Below are positions 3,747-10,549 of a stretch of DNA of 44,469 bases, piece after piece. Made by a program: the position numbers and the translations under genes. Source of the DNA: Planotetraspora mira. Lineage in GTDB: Bacteria > Actinomycetota > Actinomycetes > Streptosporangiales > Streptosporangiaceae. Every line of letters begins with the position of its first letter. Within the stretch, counting starts at the first letter, position 1. Where the stretch lies: assembly GCF_016863275.1 (NCBI RefSeq), contig NZ_BOOO01000021.1, positions 1-44,469 on the forward strand, in the 5' to 3' direction. The notes below the pieces were generated by a model, which was given only the letters and a program-made list of their open reading frames with translations, was not told the DNA's origin and ran no database searches.

Positions 3747-5351
3747 TCAGAAGCCGGCGGTGATCCGGGTGAAGTCCCAGTCGTTCTGGGCGATGCCGCT
3801 GCAGTTGGAGACCACGCCGCCGCCCGGGCAACCGCGGTCACGGTTGACCGACCAGAAGGCGAGCCTGCCGAGCCCCTTCGACTTGGCGTAGTCGCGAATC
3901 TGGGTCCAGGTCGCCACCGACGTGAGCTCCTGCTGGTCGGACAGACCGTTCATGCCCGAGATGCCCATGTGCGCGTAGGCCTGGGCGTCGGTCCAGCCCC
4001 AGGCTGTCTTAAGGGCGTTCTTCAGGCCTTCGGCCGCGTTCACGGTGTTCTGGTACATGTTCGCGCCGCCGCCGAAGTCGAACGGCATGATCGTGTAGTT
4101 GTCCACGTTGACGCCGAGCGCCTTCGACTGGTTGATCAGGCGGGTGCCGTAGTAGGTCGGCCCCGTGGTGCTCGTGCCGAAGGTGATGACGACCTTGGTG
4201 TTCGGGTTGTTCTGCTTGATGATCTTCAGGCCGCCGAGGATGCGGTCCTGGACGGCCTCGTTCTCGAACTCGTCGCTGTTCTCGATGTCGAAGTCGACCG
4301 CGGCGGGGTTGTAGGCGTTGATGACCTGCTGGACGGCCCCGGCGAACGCGGACGACGACGAGCAGTTGGGCCCGAGCTTGTTGCCCGAGTAGCCGCCGAA
4401 GGAGATCTGCACGTTGCCGCCGGCGGCCTTGATCTGCGAGATCGCCGTGGCGTCGGCGCCGCCGGTCAGCGGGCGTGAGCTGTCCCAGGCGGGCGTGCAT
4501 CCGCCGCCGGAGAGCATGAACGCCATGGTGAAGGCCTTGACGCCGGTGGCGTTCATGACCGTGGCCGGGCTCGGCGGGTTGCCCCAGCCCTCATAGAGGT
4601 ACGGCGCGCCGGGCAGTTTGCCGCCGCCGGTCGGACAGCCCGTCGTGGTCGCGGTCGCCGCGCCGCTGGCGGCGGACTCGCCCTGCCCGTTGTACGCCTT
4701 GACCGTGTAGGTGTGCGTGGTGCACGTGCCCAGGCCGGAGATCGTGGCGCTGGTGCCGGTGACGGTCGCCCGCACGGTGGTGCCCTCGTAGACCCGGTAG
4801 CCGGTGACGGTGCCGCTCGACGCTCCCCAGGACAGCGAGATCGACGCGTTGGCGGTGCCGGTGACCGTCGGGTTGCCCGGCTTGCCCGGCGCACCCGCCG
4901 GCGGAGTCGGCGTGGGCGACGTGGTCGGACCGCCTCCGCCGCAGGAGGCGCCGTTCAGCGTGCAGTTGGCCGGCGCGGCGCCCGAGCCGCCCGGGCTGCC
5001 GTTGAAGCCGAAGCTCGCGGTGCCACCAGCCGGGATGGTGCCGTTCCAGCCGAGGTTCGTGAAGGTGAAGTGCTGGCCGCTCCTGGTCATCGCGGCGTCC
5101 CAGACGGAGCCGACGCTGTACCCGGACGGCAGGTCGAACTCCACCCGCCAGGTGCTGATCGCCGACGACGTCCCGTTCGTGATCACGTACTTGCCTTCGA
5201 ACCCGGTGCCCCAGTCCTGGGTCTTGGTGAAGACCGCGGTGGCGGACGCCGCGTACGCGGGTGCGACGGCGACGATGCCGCCGACGATGGCGAGCGCCGC
5301 GGCGGCGATGACCGCACGGACGCGCAGGCCGGGGCCTGACCGTAGTTTCAT
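3747..5351 (-). CDS. Secreted chitinase: CBM2 - FN3 - GH18
   Basis: A 534-residue exported endochitinase-type protein. Residues 1-35 are a signal peptide (RVR, then an Ala/Val-rich core ending AYAA). About 36-135 is a family 2 carbohydrate-binding module (ATAVFTKTQDWGTGF, a conserved Trp, and a Cys near the C-terminus). About 155-238 is a fibronectin type III module, and 245-534 is the GH18 catalytic domain. The active-site motif reads AAVDFDIE: Asp353, Asp355 and the acid Glu357 are present, but the first Asp of DxxDxDxE is Ala350. ATG 5351 has a GAGGA ribosome site; an ATG at 5381 overlaps the upstream stop (ATGA) but lacks one. It follows the preceding chitinase by 26 bases and ends before a strong terminator, so it is the last gene of the cluster. 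Confidence 0.9.
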   Translation of the reverse strand: MKLRSGPGLRVRAVIAAAALAIVGGIVAVAPAYAASATAVFTKTQDWGTGFEGKYVITNGTSSAISTWRVEFDLPSGYSVGSVWDAAMTRSGQHFTFTNLGWNGTIPAGGTASFGFNGSPGGSGAAPANCTLNGASCGGGGPTTSPTPTPPAGAPGKPGNPTVTGTANASISLSWGASSGTVTGYRVYEGTTVRATVTGTSATISGLGTCTTHTYTVKAYNGQGESAASGAATATTTGCPTGGGKLPGAPYLYEGWGNPPSPATVMNATGVKAFTMAFMLSGGGCTPAWDSSRPLTGGADATAISQIKAAGGNVQISFGGYSGNKLGPNCSSSSAFAGAVQQVINAYNPAAVDFDIENSDEFENEAVQDRILGGLKIIKQNNPNTKVVITFGTSTTGPTYYGTRLINQSKALGVNVDNYTIMPFDFGGGANMYQNTVNAAEGLKNALKTAWGWTDAQAYAHMGISGMNGLSDQQELTSVATWTQIRDYAKSKGLGRLAFWSVNRDRGCPGGGVVSNCSGIAQNDWDFTRITAGF

Positions 5352-5377
5352 GGTTCCTCGCAGGGGGTTGGGGGGTG

Positions 5378-7042
5378 TCATCCGAGCGCGTTGAGGTACG
5401 CCCGGTGGTTGCGCGAGAACTCGGAGCCGTTGTACTTGTCCCAGTTGATGGACCAGGTCATCAGCCCGCGGAGACCGGAGAAGACACCGTGCGGGCGGTA
5501 GGAGCCGCAGTTGGTCCCCTTCGCGAGGCAGCCGAAGGCCTTCTGGACCTCGGCGACCGTGGTGAAGCCGTTCCCGGCGAACGGAGCGGCCGGCAGGCCG
5601 ATCGCCACCTGGTCGGGCCGGAGCGCGGGGAAGGTGGTGCCACCGGCGACGGGGAAGCCGGTGAGCAGCATGTCGGTCATGGCGACGTGGAAGTCGGCCA
5701 CGCTCATGGTGTGGTACTGGTTGTCGAGGCCCATGATCGGCCCGGAGTTGTAGTCCTGCACGTGGAGCAGGGTCAGGTCGGCCCGCAGAGCGTGGATGAC
5801 GGGCAGGTAGGCCCCTGACCGCGGATCCGCCGAGCCGTTCGGGCCGGGGCCGTAGAACTGGTAGCCGAGCTGCACGAAGAACGTCTCCGGCGCCATGGTG
5901 AGGACGAACTTCGAGCCGTACCTGGCCTTGAGCGACCTGATGGCCGAGATCAGGTTCACCACCACGGGGGTGGTCGGGTTGCGGAAGTCGGTGTCGCCCT
6001 GGTTGAGCGACAACGAGTGGCCCTCGAAGTCGATGTCCAGACCGTCCAGGCCGTACTTGTCGATGATCGCGCCGACGGACTGCACGAACTTGTCGCGCGC
6101 GGCGGTCGTGGTCAGCTGGACCTGGCCGTTCTGGCCGCCGATGGAGATGAGGACCTTCTTGCCCGCCGCCTGCTTGGCGCGGATCGCCGCGGTGAAGTCG
6201 GCGTCGCTCTCCACGTTGGGGCATTCGGCGGCGGGGCAGCGGTTGAACCGGATGTCCCCGGATGTGACCGAGGTCGGTTCACCGAAGGCGAGGTCGATGA
6301 AGTCCCAGTCACCGGGGACGTCGGCCATGCGGATGTAGCCGGATCCGTTGGCGAAGGACGCGTGGAGGTACCCCACCAGCAGGCGCTTGCCGTTCGACGG
6401 GGGCGGCGTGGGTGTGGGTGTCGGCGTGGGAGTGGGGGTGACGGTCGGCGTCGGGGTGGGTGTCGGAGTGGGGCTCGGCGAGGGGTTCGTGCCGCCGGGG
6501 CCGTCGAGCACGATGTCGTCGGCGAAGTAGGTGCCCTGGCCGTACCAGCCGTTGACGTAGACCGTCACGCTGCTGGTCGACGCGCCGGTCGTGAACGACG
6601 TGGTCAGCTGCTTCCACGTCGCGCCGGGGGTGCCCCACGTCTGCGCGTCCGTCGTGCCGGTGCCCGTCGCGCCGAGGAAGACGTAGTTCCCCTGGACCCA
6701 GGCGGAGACGGTGTAGGACGTGGACGGCCTGACGCTGATCGTCTGCTGGCAGCGGGCGAAGTCGCTCCCCGCCGGGGTGGCCGACAGGGCCTTGGTGCCG
6801 CCGTGGACGGGGCTGGAGACCACCGAGGCGGCCGACGGGCAGGTCCACCCGGACAGGCCGGACTCGAACCCGGGATTGGTGACGATGTTGGCGGCGGAGG
6901 CGGTGCCGCCCCACAGGGCGGTCGCCCCGAGCGCCAGCACGGCGGCCGCCGCCCAGTTGCGCACGGACATCCGCCCAGATTTCCTCGTGGCCAATGGCGC
7001 GGGCATTCGCCAGGACATTCGCCCAGACATTCGCGCAGACAT
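5378..7042 (-). CDS. Secreted chitinase: CenC-like CBM - (PT)n linker - GH18
   Basis: A 554-residue exported chitinase. After an unusual 24-residue Ser/Arg/Met-rich leader comes a signal peptide core (NWAAAAVLALGATALW, cleavage near TASAAN). A CBM4/9 (CenC)-type beta-sandwich follows at about 51-185 (NPGFESGLSGWTC start, NGWYGQGTYFADDI end), then a Pro-Thr linker to about 215 and a GH18 barrel. The catalytic motif DGLDIDFE (333-340) is complete, with Glu340 as proton donor. This barrel belongs to a different GH18 subgroup from the three sister genes. I took ATG 7042, preceded by AGGAAAG; ATG 6970 would start directly at the signal peptide. The upstream 316 bases contain a repeat array, so this may be a separate transcription unit. 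Confidence 0.88.
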   Translation of the reverse strand: MSARMSGRMSWRMPAPLATRKSGRMSVRNWAAAAVLALGATALWGGTASAANIVTNPGFESGLSGWTCPSAASVVSSPVHGGTKALSATPAGSDFARCQQTISVRPSTSYTVSAWVQGNYVFLGATGTGTTDAQTWGTPGATWKQLTTSFTTGASTSSVTVYVNGWYGQGTYFADDIVLDGPGGTNPSPSPTPTPTPTPTVTPTPTPTPTPTPPPSNGKRLLVGYLHASFANGSGYIRMADVPGDWDFIDLAFGEPTSVTSGDIRFNRCPAAECPNVESDADFTAAIRAKQAAGKKVLISIGGQNGQVQLTTTAARDKFVQSVGAIIDKYGLDGLDIDFEGHSLSLNQGDTDFRNPTTPVVVNLISAIRSLKARYGSKFVLTMAPETFFVQLGYQFYGPGPNGSADPRSGAYLPVIHALRADLTLLHVQDYNSGPIMGLDNQYHTMSVADFHVAMTDMLLTGFPVAGGTTFPALRPDQVAIGLPAAPFAGNGFTTVAEVQKAFGCLAKGTNCGSYRPHGVFSGLRGLMTWSINWDKYNGSEFSRNHRAYLNALG

Positions 7043-7043
7043 G
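7008..7043 (-). repeat. Three 12-bp tandem units at the chitinase N-terminus
   Basis: Units at 7008-7019, 7020-7031 and 7032-7043 (plus-strand pattern CGCxCAGACATT with few changes) encode MS-A/G/W-R on the minus strand just before the signal peptide. The repeat supplies three alternative in-frame ATG codons. Confidence 0.6.
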
Positions 7044-7084
7044 AGACTCACTTTCCTGGCGACCACCCCCCACCTCCCTTTTGC

Positions 7085-7333
7085 CGTGATCATGCACACC
7101 TTCGGGGAAAGTACCGCTGACCTGGCAGTTCACAATCCGTGATCATGCACACTTTCGGCGCCGGCCCGGCCGACCTGGGCATTCGCCGTTCGTGATCATG
7201 CACGCCGGTCGATCGCGCATGATCACGAACAGTGTTACCGCAGGTTGTACGGCCTTCGGCCGAATCTGTGCATGATCATGATTGAGGTTTCCGCTGGTCA
7301 GACCGGCTTCACCCGAACCTGTGCATGATCACG
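7085..7333. repeat. Mirror array of six CGTGATCATGCAC elements, 53-bp period
   Basis: Three forward copies begin at 7085, 7138 and 7191 (exactly 53 apart). Three inverted copies lie at about 7217-7228, 7267-7279 and 7320-7333 (51-53 apart), facing the first three. The two inner copies form an 11-bp perfect stem (7191-7201 with 7218-7228) around a 16-base loop. Outside the core, the 53-base units share weaker similarity, for example TTCGG directly after the core and GACCTGG-CA-TTC in units 1 and 2. No coding frame is supported in the 7043-7358 gap. It could be a regulatory multi-operator array, a structured RNA or a REP/MITE-like intergenic repeat. Confidence 0.8.
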
Positions 7334-7358
7334 CGCAAGGGAGGAGGGAGGGAGGGGG

Positions 7359-8792
7359 TCAGCCGGTGAAGGGTTTGAAGATGTTCGTGAACTCGTAGCT
7401 GGACTGGGCGACGCCGCTACAGGTGGGTGACACGGTGCCGTTCGGGCAGCCGCCGTTGTCACGGCCGACCGACCAGAACCCGATCCGGCCCACGTGGTTG
7501 GTCTGCGCGTACGACAGGAGCTTGCGGGCGTCGGCCTGGAAGGTGGTCTGGCCCGTGTCGTTCTTGCCGATCATCGGAGTGAGCCCGAGCAGCCGCTTGA
7601 TCTGCGCGTCGGTCTTCGACGGCCAGATCTGCTTCATCTGCGTCACGGTCGCGTTCGCCGCGGAGACCATGGCGTCACCCCAGTTCCCGGAGAAGCCGAA
7701 GTCCATCAGCATCGGGTTGACCATGACGTTGAGCCCCTTGGCCGCGGCGTCCTGGAGGATCTGCACCGAAAACGGGTCCATGCCGTAGTCCTGGCCGAGG
7801 ACCCGCATCGTGTAGCTGATGGTGGTCCCGCGCTCGGTCTGGAGTTGCTTGAGCGCCGTGTTCACCTTGTTGACGTCGATCGAGGCCTCGATGTCGACGT
7901 CGAGGAAGTTGGTGCCGACCGTGTCGAGCACCTTCTTGTAGGCGGCGAGCAGTGCGGCCGAGGTGCCGCAGTTGTGCTCCAGGTACGGCCCGGCCGCTCC
8001 GCCGGTGGCGACGATCACCTGGCCGCCCCTGGACTGGAGGGCCTTGACGTCGTTGATGATCCTCGAGTCGTTGACCGGGATCGTGCCGCCCCATGCCGGG
8101 TTGCAGCCGGTGCTGTCCCCGAGCGCGAACGCCAGCGTGTAGTTCTTCACCCCCGTCGCGTTGTACGCGCTGACCAGCGACGGCGTGGTCATCGTGATGT
8201 CGATGTACGGCGCGAAGGTGATGGCCCCCGGGTTCGGCGGCGGCCCGGTCGGCGTGGGTGTGGGAGTGGGGGTGGGAGTCGGCGTGGGAGTGGGCGTCGG
8301 CGTGGGCGGCACCGAGCCCGGCCCGTCGAACACGATGTCGTCCGCGTAGTAGGTGCCCTGGCCGTACCAGCCGTTGACGTAGATCGCCACGCTGGTGGTG
8401 GAGGCCCCGGTGGTGAACGACGTGGACAGCTGGGACCAGGCGGCGCCCGGCGCTCCCCAGGTCTCGGCGCTCACGCCGTTGCCGGTCGCGCCGAGGAAGA
8501 CGTAGTTGCCGCGCACCCAGGACGACAGGGTGTATTTCGTCGAGGGCTTGACGGTGATCGTCTGCTGGCAGCGGGCGTAGTCGCTCCCCGCCGGGGTGGC
8601 CGACAGCGCCTTCGTCCCTCCGTGCACGGGAGTGGAGACCGCCTGCGCCCCCGACGACCCCGAGCAGGTCCATCCGGACAGGCCGGACTCGAATCCCGGG
8701 TTGGCCGCGATGTTCGCGGCGTACGCCGTGCCGGTCAGGAAGCCCACGAGTGCGACGGACGCCACCGCGCCCAGGGTGATCAGTTTCTTCAT
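7359..8792 (-). CDS. Secreted chitinase: CenC-like CBM - (PT)n linker - GH18
   Basis: A 477-residue exported protein: signal peptide 1-25 (MKKLITLGAVASVALVGF, cleavage near AYAAN), CBM4/9-like module at about 26-158, Pro-Thr linker at 162-190 and GH18 domain at 193-477. The binding module is nearly the same as that of the 5378-7042 chitinase. The barrel instead resembles the other two sisters (FAPYIDIT; GFWSVGRDNGGCP near the end). The catalytic segment is NFLDVDIE: Asp298, Asp300 and Glu302 are kept, while the usual first Asp is Asn295. It starts 4 bases after the preceding chitinase stop, so the two form one operon. Expected role: extracellular chitin hydrolysis, with the CBM anchoring the enzyme to polysaccharide. 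Confidence 0.9.
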   Translation of the reverse strand: MKKLITLGAVASVALVGFLTGTAYAANIAANPGFESGLSGWTCSGSSGAQAVSTPVHGGTKALSATPAGSDYARCQQTITVKPSTKYTLSSWVRGNYVFLGATGNGVSAETWGAPGAAWSQLSTSFTTGASTTSVAIYVNGWYGQGTYYADDIVFDGPGSVPPTPTPTPTPTPTPTPTPTPTGPPPNPGAITFAPYIDITMTTPSLVSAYNATGVKNYTLAFALGDSTGCNPAWGGTIPVNDSRIINDVKALQSRGGQVIVATGGAAGPYLEHNCGTSAALLAAYKKVLDTVGTNFLDVDIEASIDVNKVNTALKQLQTERGTTISYTMRVLGQDYGMDPFSVQILQDAAAKGLNVMVNPMLMDFGFSGNWGDAMVSAANATVTQMKQIWPSKTDAQIKRLLGLTPMIGKNDTGQTTFQADARKLLSYAQTNHVGRIGFWSVGRDNGGCPNGTVSPTCSGVAQSSYEFTNIFKPFTG

Positions 8793-8796
8793 GGCG

Positions 8797-10134
8797 TCAT
8801 CCCGTGTACGAAGCGAAGATCTTGGAGAACTCGTAGGGCGACTGCGCGATGTTGGTGCACATGTAGAGCGCGCCGTTGCAGGCGTTGCGATCCCGGGTCG
8901 TCTCCCAGAAGGCGAGCAGGCCGAGGTGCTTGCCCTTGGCGAAGGTCACGAGTTGCCGGGCGTCGTCCTGGTTGTAGATCCGGCCGTCGTCGTTCTGCCC
9001 GAGCATCGGCGTGACGCCGACCATGCGCCACACCTGGGCGTCGGTCAGGCTCGGATACAGCGACTTGATCTGGGAGAACGTGCTGTTGACCGCCTGGACC
9101 GCCGCGTCGCCGTAGTCGACCGGCTGGTAGTAGTCCATGGCCATCACGTTGACGACGTCGAGCTTGACCCCGGCGTCCCGGGCGGACCTGACGACGTTCA
9201 GCCCGTCGGAGGTGAGGCCGTTCGGCAGGACCGGCAGGGTGAGCGAGATCTTCAGGTTGGGATGGGCCTGCTGGAGCCGGGCGAGCGCCTGCGACCTGCG
9301 GGCGACCGACGCGGGCTCGGCCGTGGCGGAGCCCTCGATGTCGAGGTCGATGTAGTTCAGGCCGTACGCGTTGACCACGGCGTTGTACTCGTTGTACAGC
9401 GCGGTCACGTCGGTGCAGGCCTGGGCGAGCTCGATCCCGGTGGCGCCGCCGAAGGAGATCTTCACGTCACCGCCGCCGGCCCTGATCGCGTCGATCTGGT
9501 CCTTGCCCCACTGCTGCCTCGGGTCGTACGCGTTGAACCACATCGCCTTGCAGCTCGACGCGGTGACGAAGCCGAGCGTGAAGTTCTTCAGGCCGGAGGC
9601 CGAGGCCATGGCGGTGAGGCTCGGGGTCGGCCAGGCGCCCATGTCCACGTACGGCGCGCTCCTGAGGTTCCCCGGCGACGGTGGTGTCGTCGGCGGCGGG
9701 GTGGGCGTGACCGTCGGCGTGGGAGTCGGCGTCGGCGTGGACCCCCCGCCTCCGCACGAAGCGCCGTTGAGCTTGCAGTTCGCCGGGACACCTGTGCCGG
9801 TGCTCACCCAGCCGAAGGCCGCGGAAGCGCCGGGGGCGAGGGTCCCGTTGTACTCGCGGTTCTTGAACGAGTAGTGGTTGCCGGACTTGGTCAGCAGCGC
9901 GTCCCAGTAGGAGCCGACCGACGACCCGGCCGGCAGGTCGAACTCGACCGTCCAGCCGGAGAGCGCGGCGCTCCCGGTGTTGGTGATCGTGTATCTGGCC
10001 TGGTAGGCGGAGCCCCAGTCGGAGTCCTTGGAGAAGACGGCCGTGGCGGTGGCGGCCTGGGCGGGAAGGGCGACGAGGGCGAGCGCGACGGCGGCCACCG
10101 CCGCCAGCACACGCCAGATGATCCTGATCTGCAT
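8797..10134 (-). CDS. Secreted chitinase: CBM2 - (PT)n linker - GH18
   Basis: A 445-residue exported chitinase and first gene of the cluster. Signal peptide 1-27 (WRVLAAVAAVALALVALPAQA), family 2 carbohydrate-binding module at about 28-128 (ATAVFSKDSDWGSAYQ, EFDLPAGSSVGSYWD, Cys pair 120/127), Pro-Thr linker at 132-153 and GH18 barrel at 157-445. The catalytic segment NYIDLDIE keeps Asp263, Asp265 and Glu267 but has Asn260 instead of the first Asp. The closest relatives in the window are the barrels of the 3747 and 7359 genes. Upstream lie a nested-hairpin leader and a perfect palindrome, suggesting substrate-dependent control of the whole minus-strand set. Confidence 0.9.
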   Translation of the reverse strand: MQIRIIWRVLAAVAAVALALVALPAQAATATAVFSKDSDWGSAYQARYTITNTGSAALSGWTVEFDLPAGSSVGSYWDALLTKSGNHYSFKNREYNGTLAPGASAAFGWVSTGTGVPANCKLNGASCGGGGSTPTPTPTPTVTPTPPPTTPPSPGNLRSAPYVDMGAWPTPSLTAMASASGLKNFTLGFVTASSCKAMWFNAYDPRQQWGKDQIDAIRAGGGDVKISFGGATGIELAQACTDVTALYNEYNAVVNAYGLNYIDLDIEGSATAEPASVARRSQALARLQQAHPNLKISLTLPVLPNGLTSDGLNVVRSARDAGVKLDVVNVMAMDYYQPVDYGDAAVQAVNSTFSQIKSLYPSLTDAQVWRMVGVTPMLGQNDDGRIYNQDDARQLVTFAKGKHLGLLAFWETTRDRNACNGALYMCTNIAQSPYEFSKIFASYTG

Positions 10135-10173
10135 GTCACAACCTCTGGGGGGTGAGATGGGAGGTCATGGAAC

Positions 10174-10229
10174 CCGTACGGCTGACGCCTCACGGAGGCG
10201 GCCGAGTAGAAACGGCGCCAGCCGTACGG
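10174..10229 (-). promoter_or_regulatory. Nested hairpin in the chitinase operon leader
   Basis: An 11-bp perfect inverted repeat (10174-10184 with 10219-10229) encloses a second perfect 6-bp stem with a 3-base loop (10186-10191 with 10195-10200). It lies between the palindromic operator and the first chitinase start, so it would fold in the 5' leader RNA. An attenuator, RNA-stability element or protein-binding dyad are all possible. Confidence 0.5.
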
Positions 10230-10285
10230 CGCTTCTTGGCGTCTGGTGACGGGACGCAGTCTCGGAGGTGAACGAAGGTCTTTTT

Positions 10286-10302
10286 TTAGGAAAGTTTCCT
10301 AA
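10286..10302. promoter_or_regulatory. Perfect 17-bp palindrome, probable operator of chitinase genes
   Basis: TTAGGAAAGTTTCCTAA is an 8+1+8 perfect palindrome, AT-rich in a GC-rich setting and immediately next to a run of seven Ts (10281-10287). It is about 150 bases upstream of the first chitinase and about 250 upstream of the divergent ABC exporter. The symmetry implies a dimeric repressor; ROK-type sugar regulators are one candidate class, but the regulator is not in this window. It does not match the DasR site. I see no gene in the rest of the 10303-10549 gap. Confidence 0.6.
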
Positions 10303-10549
10303 GAGTTGATCGGATCGTAGCCCGGCCGACAGGGGGCGGCAAGGCCCAAACGGAAGGGAATTCTGACGAGCTCTGTCAGAGGTCCACGACTGGCGGGAAG
10401 CGTAGTCGCGGGCTTTTCTGACCGGCAAGGGCGCGACCTTAAACGACCCTTATCTCTGCCTCAAGCCCAGATCTCGTGCCTCAGGCCCGGCCGCCGCGCT
10501 GACAGCGTTCTGCCAGGGGCGTGCCAGCGGGCGCCCCGATCCTCAGGAC

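What the first reader, a model, noticed from the sequence alone, without database searches (positions are those of the whole stretch)
7085..7333. Mirror-image array of six 13-bp elements on a 53-bp period between chitinase genes
Three forward copies of CGTGATCATGCAC start at 7085, 7138 and 7191. Three inverted copies face them at about 7217, 7267 and 7320, again 51-53 bases apart, so the region is symmetric about 7209. Inner copies form a perfect 11-bp hairpin. Units share further similarity beyond the core. A 53-bp period is five helical turns, so bound proteins would line up on one face. None of the annotated genes explains it: it could be a cooperative operator array, a folded RNA, or a mobile REP/MITE-type unit duplicated head to head. 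ATG triplets in the cores do not open a frame.
Basis: seen in the sequence. Interest (0 to 1): 0.7.

Follow-up and report, generated by a model that had tools for sequence, protein, structure and literature searches.

The report
Genome-wide 53-bp arrays at gene ends
The mirror-image repeat beside a chitinase-type gene is one of many similar arrays that sit at the ends of genes in these soil bacteria, built from a short DNA word that reappears in some distant relatives with a different suffix in each lineage, which suggests an unknown DNA-reading factor.

Summary
The genome (genus Planotetraspora) holds 323/342 (forward/reverse) tandem pairs of GTGATCATGCAC at exactly 53 bp; reversed-pattern control 0/0. 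Of 122 exact 12-mer cores in 0.84 Mb, 119 lie in such arrays and none deep inside called genes. A unit is core + tag + second box (CGTGATCATGCACAggTTCGg…TGACCTGc), behind a C-rich tract. Arrays start mostly near gene stop codons, favour convergent gene ends, and in 90 of 90 two-sided sites the arms read inward. Related species keep them at the same places; tag-end and second-box bases are better conserved than linkers. The tag consensus differs between lineages. The same core, with other tags and spacings, is strongly enriched in five sampled genomes of four other families of the class and near background in most others. Chitinase operator, folded RNA and RAYT-driven REP are not supported. Best reading: a REP/BIME-like intergenic repeat system acting as a directional, lineage-tuned binding array for an unidentified protein, most likely marking or insulating transcription-unit ends. 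Protein and function are inferred, not shown. The paper searches made brought up no description.

The parts
7063..7084 (+). C-rich tract on the outer side of the left arm (CCACCCCCCACCTCCCTTTTGC)
   Evidence: C-rich outer flanks are general: C 0.53, n=69 arms, against 0.36 in 543 array-less 3' ends, and in other genera
7085..7137 (+). unit 1 of left arm: core CGTGATCATGCAC + tag ACCTTCGG + second box TGACCTGG
7138..7190 (+). unit 2 of left arm: core + ACTTTCGG + CGACCTGG
7191..7203 (+). last core of the left arm, not followed by tag or box
   Evidence: innermost cores lack the boxes in general
7204..7214 (.). central spacer; the gap between the facing 11-mers is 13 bp, the commonest geometry
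   Evidence: 13 of 62 clusters of two-sided sites
7215..7227 (-). last core of the right arm (CGTGATCATGCGC)
7228..7280 (-). unit 2 of right arm: CATGATCATGCAC + AGATTCGG + CAACCTGC
7281..7333 (-). unit 1 of right arm: core + AGGTTCGG + TGACCAGC
7334..7358 (-). C-rich tract on the outer side of the right arm (G-rich on +), ending at the stop codon of the right gene
5378..7042 (-). flanking gene, 5' end towards the array: CBM_4_9 + GH18 protein (start ATG at 7042-7040, or internal at 6970 as my caller chose)
7359..8792 (-). flanking gene, 3' end towards the array: CBM_4_9 protein (chitinase-like C-terminal part by eye; Pfam reports no GH18 hit)

Best explanation
The array is one site of a dispersed intergenic repeat system of Actinomycetes. 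SHOWN: a 12-bp core, CGTGATC(A/T)TGCA, is followed by a lineage-specific tag and usually preceded by a C-rich tract. In the Planotetraspora/Microbispora/Sphaerimonospora group it is repeated on a rigid 53-bp lattice with a second box, read inward from one or both sides of an intergenic region, mostly from near the stop codon of the adjacent gene. INFERRED: a sequence-specific DNA-binding protein, not identified, docks on core + tag (and second box) with a fixed polarity, and neighbouring copies are held one 53-bp step apart. Mirror arms make the site work from both sides. INFERRED, less sure: the bound array marks or insulates the end of transcription units by stopping or loading off RNA polymerase that enters from either side (perhaps with the C-rich RNA upstream helping Rho), in place of a hairpin terminator. 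Its evolutionary kind is REP/BIME-like: intergenic repeats that spread long ago in some lineages and are then held in place by selection.
For: Lattice: pairs at 53 bp 323/342 against control 0/0, in 5 of 5 genomes of the genus and, with relaxed core, at least 11 pairs in 13 of 341 genomes of the family. Intergenic: 119 of 122 exact cores in arrays, 0 deep in genes; no called gene inside 148 of 150 sites. Inward arms in 90 of 90 two-sided sites. Placement: convergent junctions 66 of 150 sites against 262 of 1,346 junctions, divergent 10 of 150 against 320 of 1,346 (P 2e-13 and 1e-8, G000 alone 0.038 and 0.036); 163 of 221 arms face a 3' end; the core's own TGA is the stop codon in 23 of 90. Selection: between this genome and P. 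silvatica, TTCG + second-box columns 583/624 identical against 996/1,196 in free columns (P 2e-10; core 516/520, biased by detection). Sites orthologous: 7 of 7 mapped sites keep cores in G002, 5 of 5 in P. thailandica; window site in G001-G004 and G137. Tag consensus differs between lineages, also at orthologous sites, while linkers stay unrelated. Geometry: central gap 13 bp in 13 of 62 clusters, 1-2 bp in 10; neighbouring-base dependences but no pairing. Array 3' ends have weaker hairpins (-9.1, n=26, against -13.7 kcal/mol, n=335). At one site the array of G149 stands where the P. thailandica ortholog has a hairpin by eye. The core occurs with other tags in G093, G432, G491, G414, G091.
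Against: No binding protein was found and no expression data exist here. 58 of 221 arms face gene 5' ends, where a terminator makes no sense unless it stops antisense or upstream transcription. Spacing in distant lineages is not 53 bp and not helically uniform (mostly 37 in G093, 22 in G091, inverted 32 in G432), so same-face binding is not general. The AT periodicity of the unit at 10.6 bp is not significant (P 0.075). Most of the hairpin difference follows from base composition (shuffled -8.2 against -12.0). Within a genome the tag is a consensus, not invariant (ACAGGTTCG in 37 of 129 G000 units, AGAAGTTCG in 19 of 26 in P. thailandica). 10 of 15 genomes of g95 (Microbispora) have no pair, so the system is dispensable.
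Confidence: 0.45

Rival explanations
1. A purely REP/MITE-like mobile repeat: core + tag are the ends recognised by a lineage-specific transposase, gene 3' ends are merely tolerated insertion sites, and arrays grow by tandem duplication. No host function.
For: Dispersed, intergenic, 3'- and convergent-biased like REPs. Sporadic: 287 exact cores in G432, 0 in G388 of the same genus. Conserved outer core with variable inner tag resembles terminal repeats of a transposon family. In distant genomes short palindromes of core-tag-tag'-core'. Period constant within a site but variable between sites in G093 points to tandem duplication. Some arrays present in one lineage where relatives have 12 bp or overlapping genes (G001:153943, G001:106374).
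Against: No Y1/RAYT in 7 of 13 array genomes (G000, G002-G004, G137, G144, G149). Linkers at different sites as unlike as random (0.356, max 0.76 of free columns), so no recent copying between sites was seen. Sites stable between close species. Conservation outside the detection core. No target duplication seen at the few sites read by eye. Two patterns found no such element in viral contigs (0; 6 stretches, unrelated); one G491 element gave one weak, unrelated plasmid match.
Confidence: 0.3
2. A chromosome-organising or nucleoid-protein site (bridging, looping, supercoil boundary) that needs clusters of phased sites; gene ends are used because they are free of coding constraint.
For: Rigid 53-bp lattice and clusters of 2-6 cores per arm; inward mirror arms; spread over many contigs; arm length changes by lineage (mean cores per arm 4.2 G000, 4.3 silvatica, 3.4 G001, 2.4 G002, 3.0 G137, 3.3 G149).
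Against: No regular spacing: 0 sites in the first 80 kb of C4, then 3 within 13 kb; 3 sites in 321.5 kb of 18 other stretches (about 9/Mb) against 22 in 0.70 Mb of C1+C2 (about 31/Mb). Replication polarity was not tested (origin not located).
Confidence: 0.12
3. DNA-uptake-type signal with species dialects (as DUS in Neisseriaceae), accumulated by selective uptake of kin DNA.
For: 12-mer with lineage dialects, inverted pairs at gene ends, a UGA in the word; these are reported for DUS (PMC3630211, PMC2397512, passages).
Against: 0 of 122 exact cores deep inside genes, whereas DUS also lie inside genes (PMC2397512 passage). A single DUS suffices for transformation (same passage), but here copies come in fixed lattices with a second box. 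Density is lower: 684 exact cores in 9 Mb against one DUS per about 1.1-1.5 kb (PMC2397512 passage).
Confidence: 0.06
4. RNA element: the transcribed array folds into a long hairpin that stabilises or terminates mRNA.
For: Two-sided arrays are inverted repeats by construction; distant genomes carry strong palindromes; one mirror-partner pair of units is 95% alike in free columns.
Against: No covariation inside units. 79 of 150 sites are one-sided and cannot pair. No Rfam match. No intrinsic-terminator pattern at the site.
Confidence: 0.07

Closest known systems
REP/BIME elements with RAYT (TnpA-REP) transposases
   Same: Dispersed intergenic units, biased to gene 3' ends and convergent junctions, often in inverted combinations, with lineage-specific sequence beside a conserved short motif (REP details recalled).
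   Different: No Y1 transposase found in this genome or in 6 other array genomes of 13. The unit is not a hairpin. A 12-bp core is shared by several families. Rigid 53-bp lattice with a second box; conserved boxes at orthologous sites.
DNA uptake sequences (DUS) and their dialects in Neisseriaceae
   Same: Short word at hundreds of places, dialects by lineage, inverted pairs at terminators, UGA in the word (PMC3630211 and PMC2397512, passages).
   Different: Not found deep inside genes (0 of 122), clustered 2-6 per arm on a lattice, C-rich flank.
Mycobacterial interspersed repetitive units (MIRU)
   Same: Tandem intergenic units in actinomycetes; recalled: many MIRU loci have 51-54-bp units that overlap stop and start codons. 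My paper searches and passages did not show unit length or sequence.
   Different: No inverted arms recalled; sequence relation not tested.
BrickBuilt MITE of Porphyromonas gingivalis (PMC4596501, abstract and outline)
   Same: Intergenic tandem array of a 23-nt unit with inverted-repeat ends, limited host range.
   Different: Found 19 times in one strain, units without spacers, promoter activity reported; here hundreds of units with diverged linkers and arms reading inward.
TAACTGA direct repeats of marine Beggiatoaceae (PMC4679880, abstract and outline)
   Different: 7-mer just upstream of start codons, suggested to act on translation; from the abstract no fixed long period, mirror arms or dialects.
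Directional protein-bound terminators of rDNA (Sal boxes/TTF-I, Reb1; recalled)
   Same: Works-like comparison only: arrays of oriented sites downstream of genes that stop polymerase from one side.
   Different: Eukaryotic, sequence relation not expected or tested; function here not shown.

Membership tests
REP/BIME (RAYT-associated) | dispersed intergenic units biased to gene 3' ends | tested here: met
REP/BIME (RAYT-associated) | unit is a small imperfect palindrome that folds as a hairpin | tested here: not met
   pairing between boxes equals shuffled; tag changes without change in box 2 (in distant genomes whole palindromes do occur)
REP/BIME (RAYT-associated) | Y1_Tnp (RAYT) gene in the genome | tested here: not met
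   none in G000; present in 6 of 13 array genomes and 6 of 10 array-less ones
MITE / non-autonomous transposon | near-identical copies at different sites | tested here: not met
   (the G000 stretches read): free columns 0.356 alike between sites, maximum 0.76
MITE / non-autonomous transposon | target-site duplication and clean empty sites | tested here: inconclusive
   flanks of a few sites read by eye, no duplication seen; occupied/empty pairs differ by more than the array
DNA uptake sequence | 10-12-mer at hundreds of places with lineage dialects | tested here: met
DNA uptake sequence | common inside genes as well as between them | tested here: not met
   0 of 122 deep inside called genes, 86% coding
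DNA uptake sequence | drives uptake through a pilin receptor | not testable with these tools
   needs transformation assays
Intrinsic terminator | G+C hairpin followed by T run | tested here: not met
   (one match in 5000-10500, at 10215-10232, none near the array)
Operator of chitin genes | restricted to chitin-related genes | tested here: not met
Structured RNA family (Rfam) | match to a covariance model | tested here: not met
   none up to E = 1 in 6800-7600
MIRU | sequence relation to mycobacterial units | not tested
   unit sequences recalled only; searches did not give them

The most novel reading that the evidence does not exclude
An undescribed bacterial boundary system: a DNA-binding protein family of Actinomycetes recognises one shared 12-bp word plus a lineage-specific tag and builds oriented arrays at gene ends, one- or two-sided, that stop transcription from the side they face. 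Protein and hundreds of sites change their dialect together, and each lineage has its own spacing.
Probability: 0.3. Interest if true: 0.9.

Novelty: new variant of a known kind. Interest (0 to 1): 0.73.

Why it matters
By inference from the pair counts, something over a hundred intergenic regions in this genome carry a conserved, oriented, rigidly spaced, binding-site-like array with no match in Rfam at the window site. If it blocks transcription, bacteria have a protein-roadblock way of ending genes, comparable in logic to the oriented terminator arrays of eukaryotic rDNA. If it is mobile, it is a repeat superfamily with one core kept across families and the rest re-tagged in each lineage, apparently without the known REP transposase. 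Either way, the shift of tag consensus at orthologous sites is a natural experiment in how a DNA reader and hundreds of its sites evolve together, and the sites are ready-made bait for finding the protein.

Tried and rejected
Chitin-specific operator: rejected. RNA hairpin within the unit: rejected by pairing counts. RAYT/REP membership: not met. Regular spacing along the chromosome: not seen in the stretches read. 10.6-bp AT phasing of the unit: suggestive only, P 0.075. Helical series of central gaps beyond 13 and 1-2 bp: no clean 10.5-bp period. Hairpin replacement: mostly composition. Other arrays with another word in array-less G145: none found in 120 kb, but the same scan also missed the arrays of G149 in one of two stretches, so it is weak. 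Trans-factor search by synteny (genes in G149 but not in G145): only a response regulator with 37-39% hits in the 120-140 kb compared. Viral contigs: the 6 stretches are unrelated low-GC repeats. Literature: 16 papers hold one of six core words (listing only); by title none is about genomic repeats, and PMC5839063 holds a predicted ARG box (passage). No paper on such repeats in Planotetraspora, Microbispora or the family was among those listed in searches (8 of 244 listed) and 72; only open-licence PMC papers are searched.

Limits: genes were called with a home-made codon-usage caller, not an annotation. Site tallies over several species contain orthologs, and part of the G000 stretches (C4:90-110 kb, the window) was chosen because it holds arrays. 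In the P. silvatica comparison 12 of 13 shared sites were used (one lies on an inverted stretch) and unit pairs under 36/53 identity were dropped. In G002 one of the 7 sites has only a single core on each side, and in G149 one of 2 has a single core. Loci L273-L302 overlap (30 loci, fewer sites). The phylum sample did not contain G432, G491, G414 or G091.

Full report
1. THE OBSERVATION. At 7085-7333 three forward and three inverted copies of a 13-bp word lie at exactly 53-bp steps on each arm. Inner copies give a perfect 11-bp inverted repeat around 7209. The count is beyond chance (0 pairs in 60 shuffles).

2. IT IS GENOME-WIDE. The 9.03-Mb genome has 502/514 copies of GTGATCATGCAC at <=1 mismatch, reversed control 2/3, and 323/342 pairs at 53 bp at <=2 mismatches, control 0/0. 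In 0.84 Mb read in full (partly chosen because it holds arrays) there are 26 sites. 119 of 122 exact 12-mers there are in arrays and 0 deep inside called genes, at 86% coding. An arm has 2-6 cores, mean 4.2. Roughly 130-140 sites in the genome is my inference from 698 pairs at the relaxed core and 129 full units in 26 sites.

3. ANATOMY OF THE UNIT. Over 169 units and by position in the arm: CGTGATCATGCACA-gg-TTCGg, then about 12 free bases, (T/C)GACCTGc, aAC.C, next core at 53. The last core of an arm is not followed by tag or box. Before the first core comes a C-rich tract (C 0.53, G 0.20, n=69 arms; array-less 3' ends C 0.36, G 0.34, n=543; C minus G >= 8 in 0.52 against 0.06, the latter over the best of nine windows). 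It is there on arms that face gene 3' ends and on arms that face 5' ends, and in Microbispora and Sphaerimonospora. In 90 of 90 two-sided sites the arms point inward (orthologs included). Over 62 clusters of two-sided sites the gap between facing 11-mers is 13 bp in 13, 12 in 3 and 1-2 in 10, the rest scattered.

4. PLACE. Of 150 sites (26 G000, 21 relatives, 103 in named loci; orthologs included) 148 have no called gene inside; 71 are two-sided and 79 one-sided. Convergent junctions are 66 of 150 against 262 of 1,346 of all junctions of at least 30 bp, divergent 10 of 150 against 320 of 1,346 (P 2e-13 and 1e-8; G000 alone 9 of 26 and 2 of 26, P 0.038 and 0.036). 163 of 221 arms face a gene 3' end, typically 10-30 bp after the stop codon or overlapping it. 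In 23 of 90 such arms of the sets the TGA of the first core is the stop codon. 58 arms face gene starts, 38 of them at 45-200 bp. Neighbours are ordinary genes: leuA, hemW, miaB, glyA, rsgA, hutI-like, cysH, an IclR-type regulator. In the window one neighbour has CBM_4_9 + GH18 domains and the other CBM_4_9.

5. RELATIVES. Pairs at 53 bp occur in 5 of 5 genomes of the genus. In the family, 28 of 341 genomes match the relaxed pattern; 13 have at least 11 pairs: five Planotetraspora, G137, five of 15 in g95 (Microbispora by inference) and two of two in g34 (Sphaerimonospora by inference); the other 15 have one or two matches. Sites are orthologous: of the G000 sites that could be mapped, 7 of 7 keep cores in G002 (arrays shorter; one site with a single core per side), 5 of 5 in G001, 2 of 2 in G137, 2 of 2 in G149 (one with a single core), 0 of 1 in array-less G145. 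The window site itself has three cores per arm in G001, G003, G004 and G137, and a contracted form in G002. Some sites of G001 and G149 are missing in G000. Mean arm length changes by lineage: 4.2 and 4.3 (G000, silvatica), 3.4 (G001), 2.4 (G002), 3.0 (G137), 3.3 (G149).

6. SELECTION AND DIALECTS. Between G000 and P. silvatica, in 52 unit pairs from 12 of 13 shared sites, TTCG and second-box columns are identical in 583 of 624 cells and free columns in 996 of 1,196 (P 2e-10); core 516 of 520, but the core was used for detection. Free columns of units from different sites are 0.356 alike, same arm 0.395, mirror partner 0.439: sites are not recent copies of each other, while some within-site pairs are nearly identical, as local duplication or arm exchange would give. 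The tag has a consensus per lineage that differs between lineages, also at orthologous sites: CACAggTTCG (G000, silvatica, kaengkrachanensis; bases 14-15 vary), CACA..TTCCC (A-T 1434, G137), CAGAAGTTCG (thailandica, 19 of 26 units), CAGA.ACTCGCA (Sphaerimonospora), CAGTTTGTCGCA (Microbispora), with the second box kept (some sets are small, 9-35 units). I infer co-evolution with something that reads core and tag. The strongest dependences are between neighbouring bases, and pairing of box 1 with box 2 equals shuffled, so a protein on DNA fits better than RNA.

7. FAR RELATIVES, THE SURPRISE. In an even sample of 197 genomes of the class (118 with at least one match) the exact 12-mer CGTGATCATGCA is at 0-4 copies per strand in most, but 134/154 in G093, 150/137 in G432, 27/8 in G091, 18/11 in G491 and 12/10 in G414 (four other families), with reversed controls of 0-1 throughout. 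G388, same genus as G432, has none. Each has its own tag after the core: ATCCCGCCACCC, (C/G)ATC.TGGG, a looser G/C-rich tag, CGTTCGCCC, GTTGnTGT (in the order G093, G432, G091, G491, G414). C is 0.58-0.67 in the outer flank in four (in G091 with G 0.31) and 0.43 in G414 (4-6 flanks each). Many of the loci read lie close to a gene 3' end, some between divergent genes. Spacing is lineage-specific: G093 mostly 37 with other values constant within a site, G091 22, G414 inverted pairs 50 apart, G432 inverted pairs at 32 in 9 of 17 within the 97 listed positions of contig C1. A palindrome pattern over 246 genomes of the phylum matched only G000 and G093 (the other four were not in that sample). So the core is older or more mobile than the 53-bp lattice, and the lattice as a rule is so far known from one family, with a few 53-bp pairs in G432 and G491.

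8. WHAT IT DOES. The site is directional, starts near gene ends, is conserved, and its tag shifts by lineage. A protein array that marks or insulates transcription units explains orientation, mirror arms at convergent ends, and the weak hairpins there (-9.1 against -13.7 kcal/mol, though shuffled sequences already give -8.2 and -12.0). At one site the G149 array stands where the P. thailandica ortholog has a hairpin by eye. The C-rich RNA in front would suit Rho; that is inference. Against: a quarter of arms face gene starts, the protein is unknown, and no transcription data were at hand. A mobile-repeat reading without function remains the main rival (sporadic distribution, palindromes in far relatives), weakened by the absence of Y1 transposase in 7 of 13 array genomes, unrelated linkers and stable sites.

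9. KNOWN KINDS. Resembles REP/BIMEs in placement, but fails two defining features. Resembles DUS in dialects and inverted pairs (PMC3630211 and PMC2397512, passages), but is not found deep in genes. MIRU with about 53-bp units is a recalled lead that the papers found did not let me test. BrickBuilt (PMC4596501) and TAACTGA repeats (PMC4679880) were seen as abstract and outline. I therefore file it as a new variant of dispersed intergenic repeats, with a real chance that it is a new kind of boundary system.

Noticed in passing
window 7334-7358: G-rich run on + (GGGAGGAGGGAGGGAGGGGG, by eye a G-quadruplex-type motif) between the array and the stop codon of the right gene; C-rich/G-rich tracts bound arrays in other genera too.
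   Followed up: partly
window about 6985-7045: Short direct repeats (ATTCGC(C/G)CAGACATTCGC-like, by eye) over the N-terminal or leader region of the left gene, present with changes in P. silvatica (L228).
   Followed up: no
window 3747-10134: Four neighbouring genes on the minus strand with carbohydrate-binding domains (CBM_2 or CBM_4_9); three have GH18 hits, one of them below the Pfam cut-off. Only one junction between them carries an array.
   Followed up: partly
G001 (P. thailandica) C12 stretch, 106374 and 153943: Arrays where G000, silvatica and G002 have overlapping genes or a 12-bp junction; a core-like remnant (CACATGACCACG, by eye) sits at the G000 junction, so loss in that lineage is possible.
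   Followed up: partly
G091:C9:47884-48247: A long tandem run of the 12-mer at 22-bp steps (16 listed exact copies, one step missing) in a far-off family.
   Followed up: no
G093, C1: 3.1-Mb genome with 288 exact cores; period constant within a site but different between sites (23, 30, 37, 41, 45, 55 bp in the listed part), a good place to study how arrays grow.
   Followed up: no
G000 C1+C2 against 18 other stretches: Array density about 31 per Mb in two contigs with many housekeeping genes (22 sites in 0.70 Mb), 9 per Mb in 321.5 kb sampled elsewhere (3 sites).
   Followed up: partly
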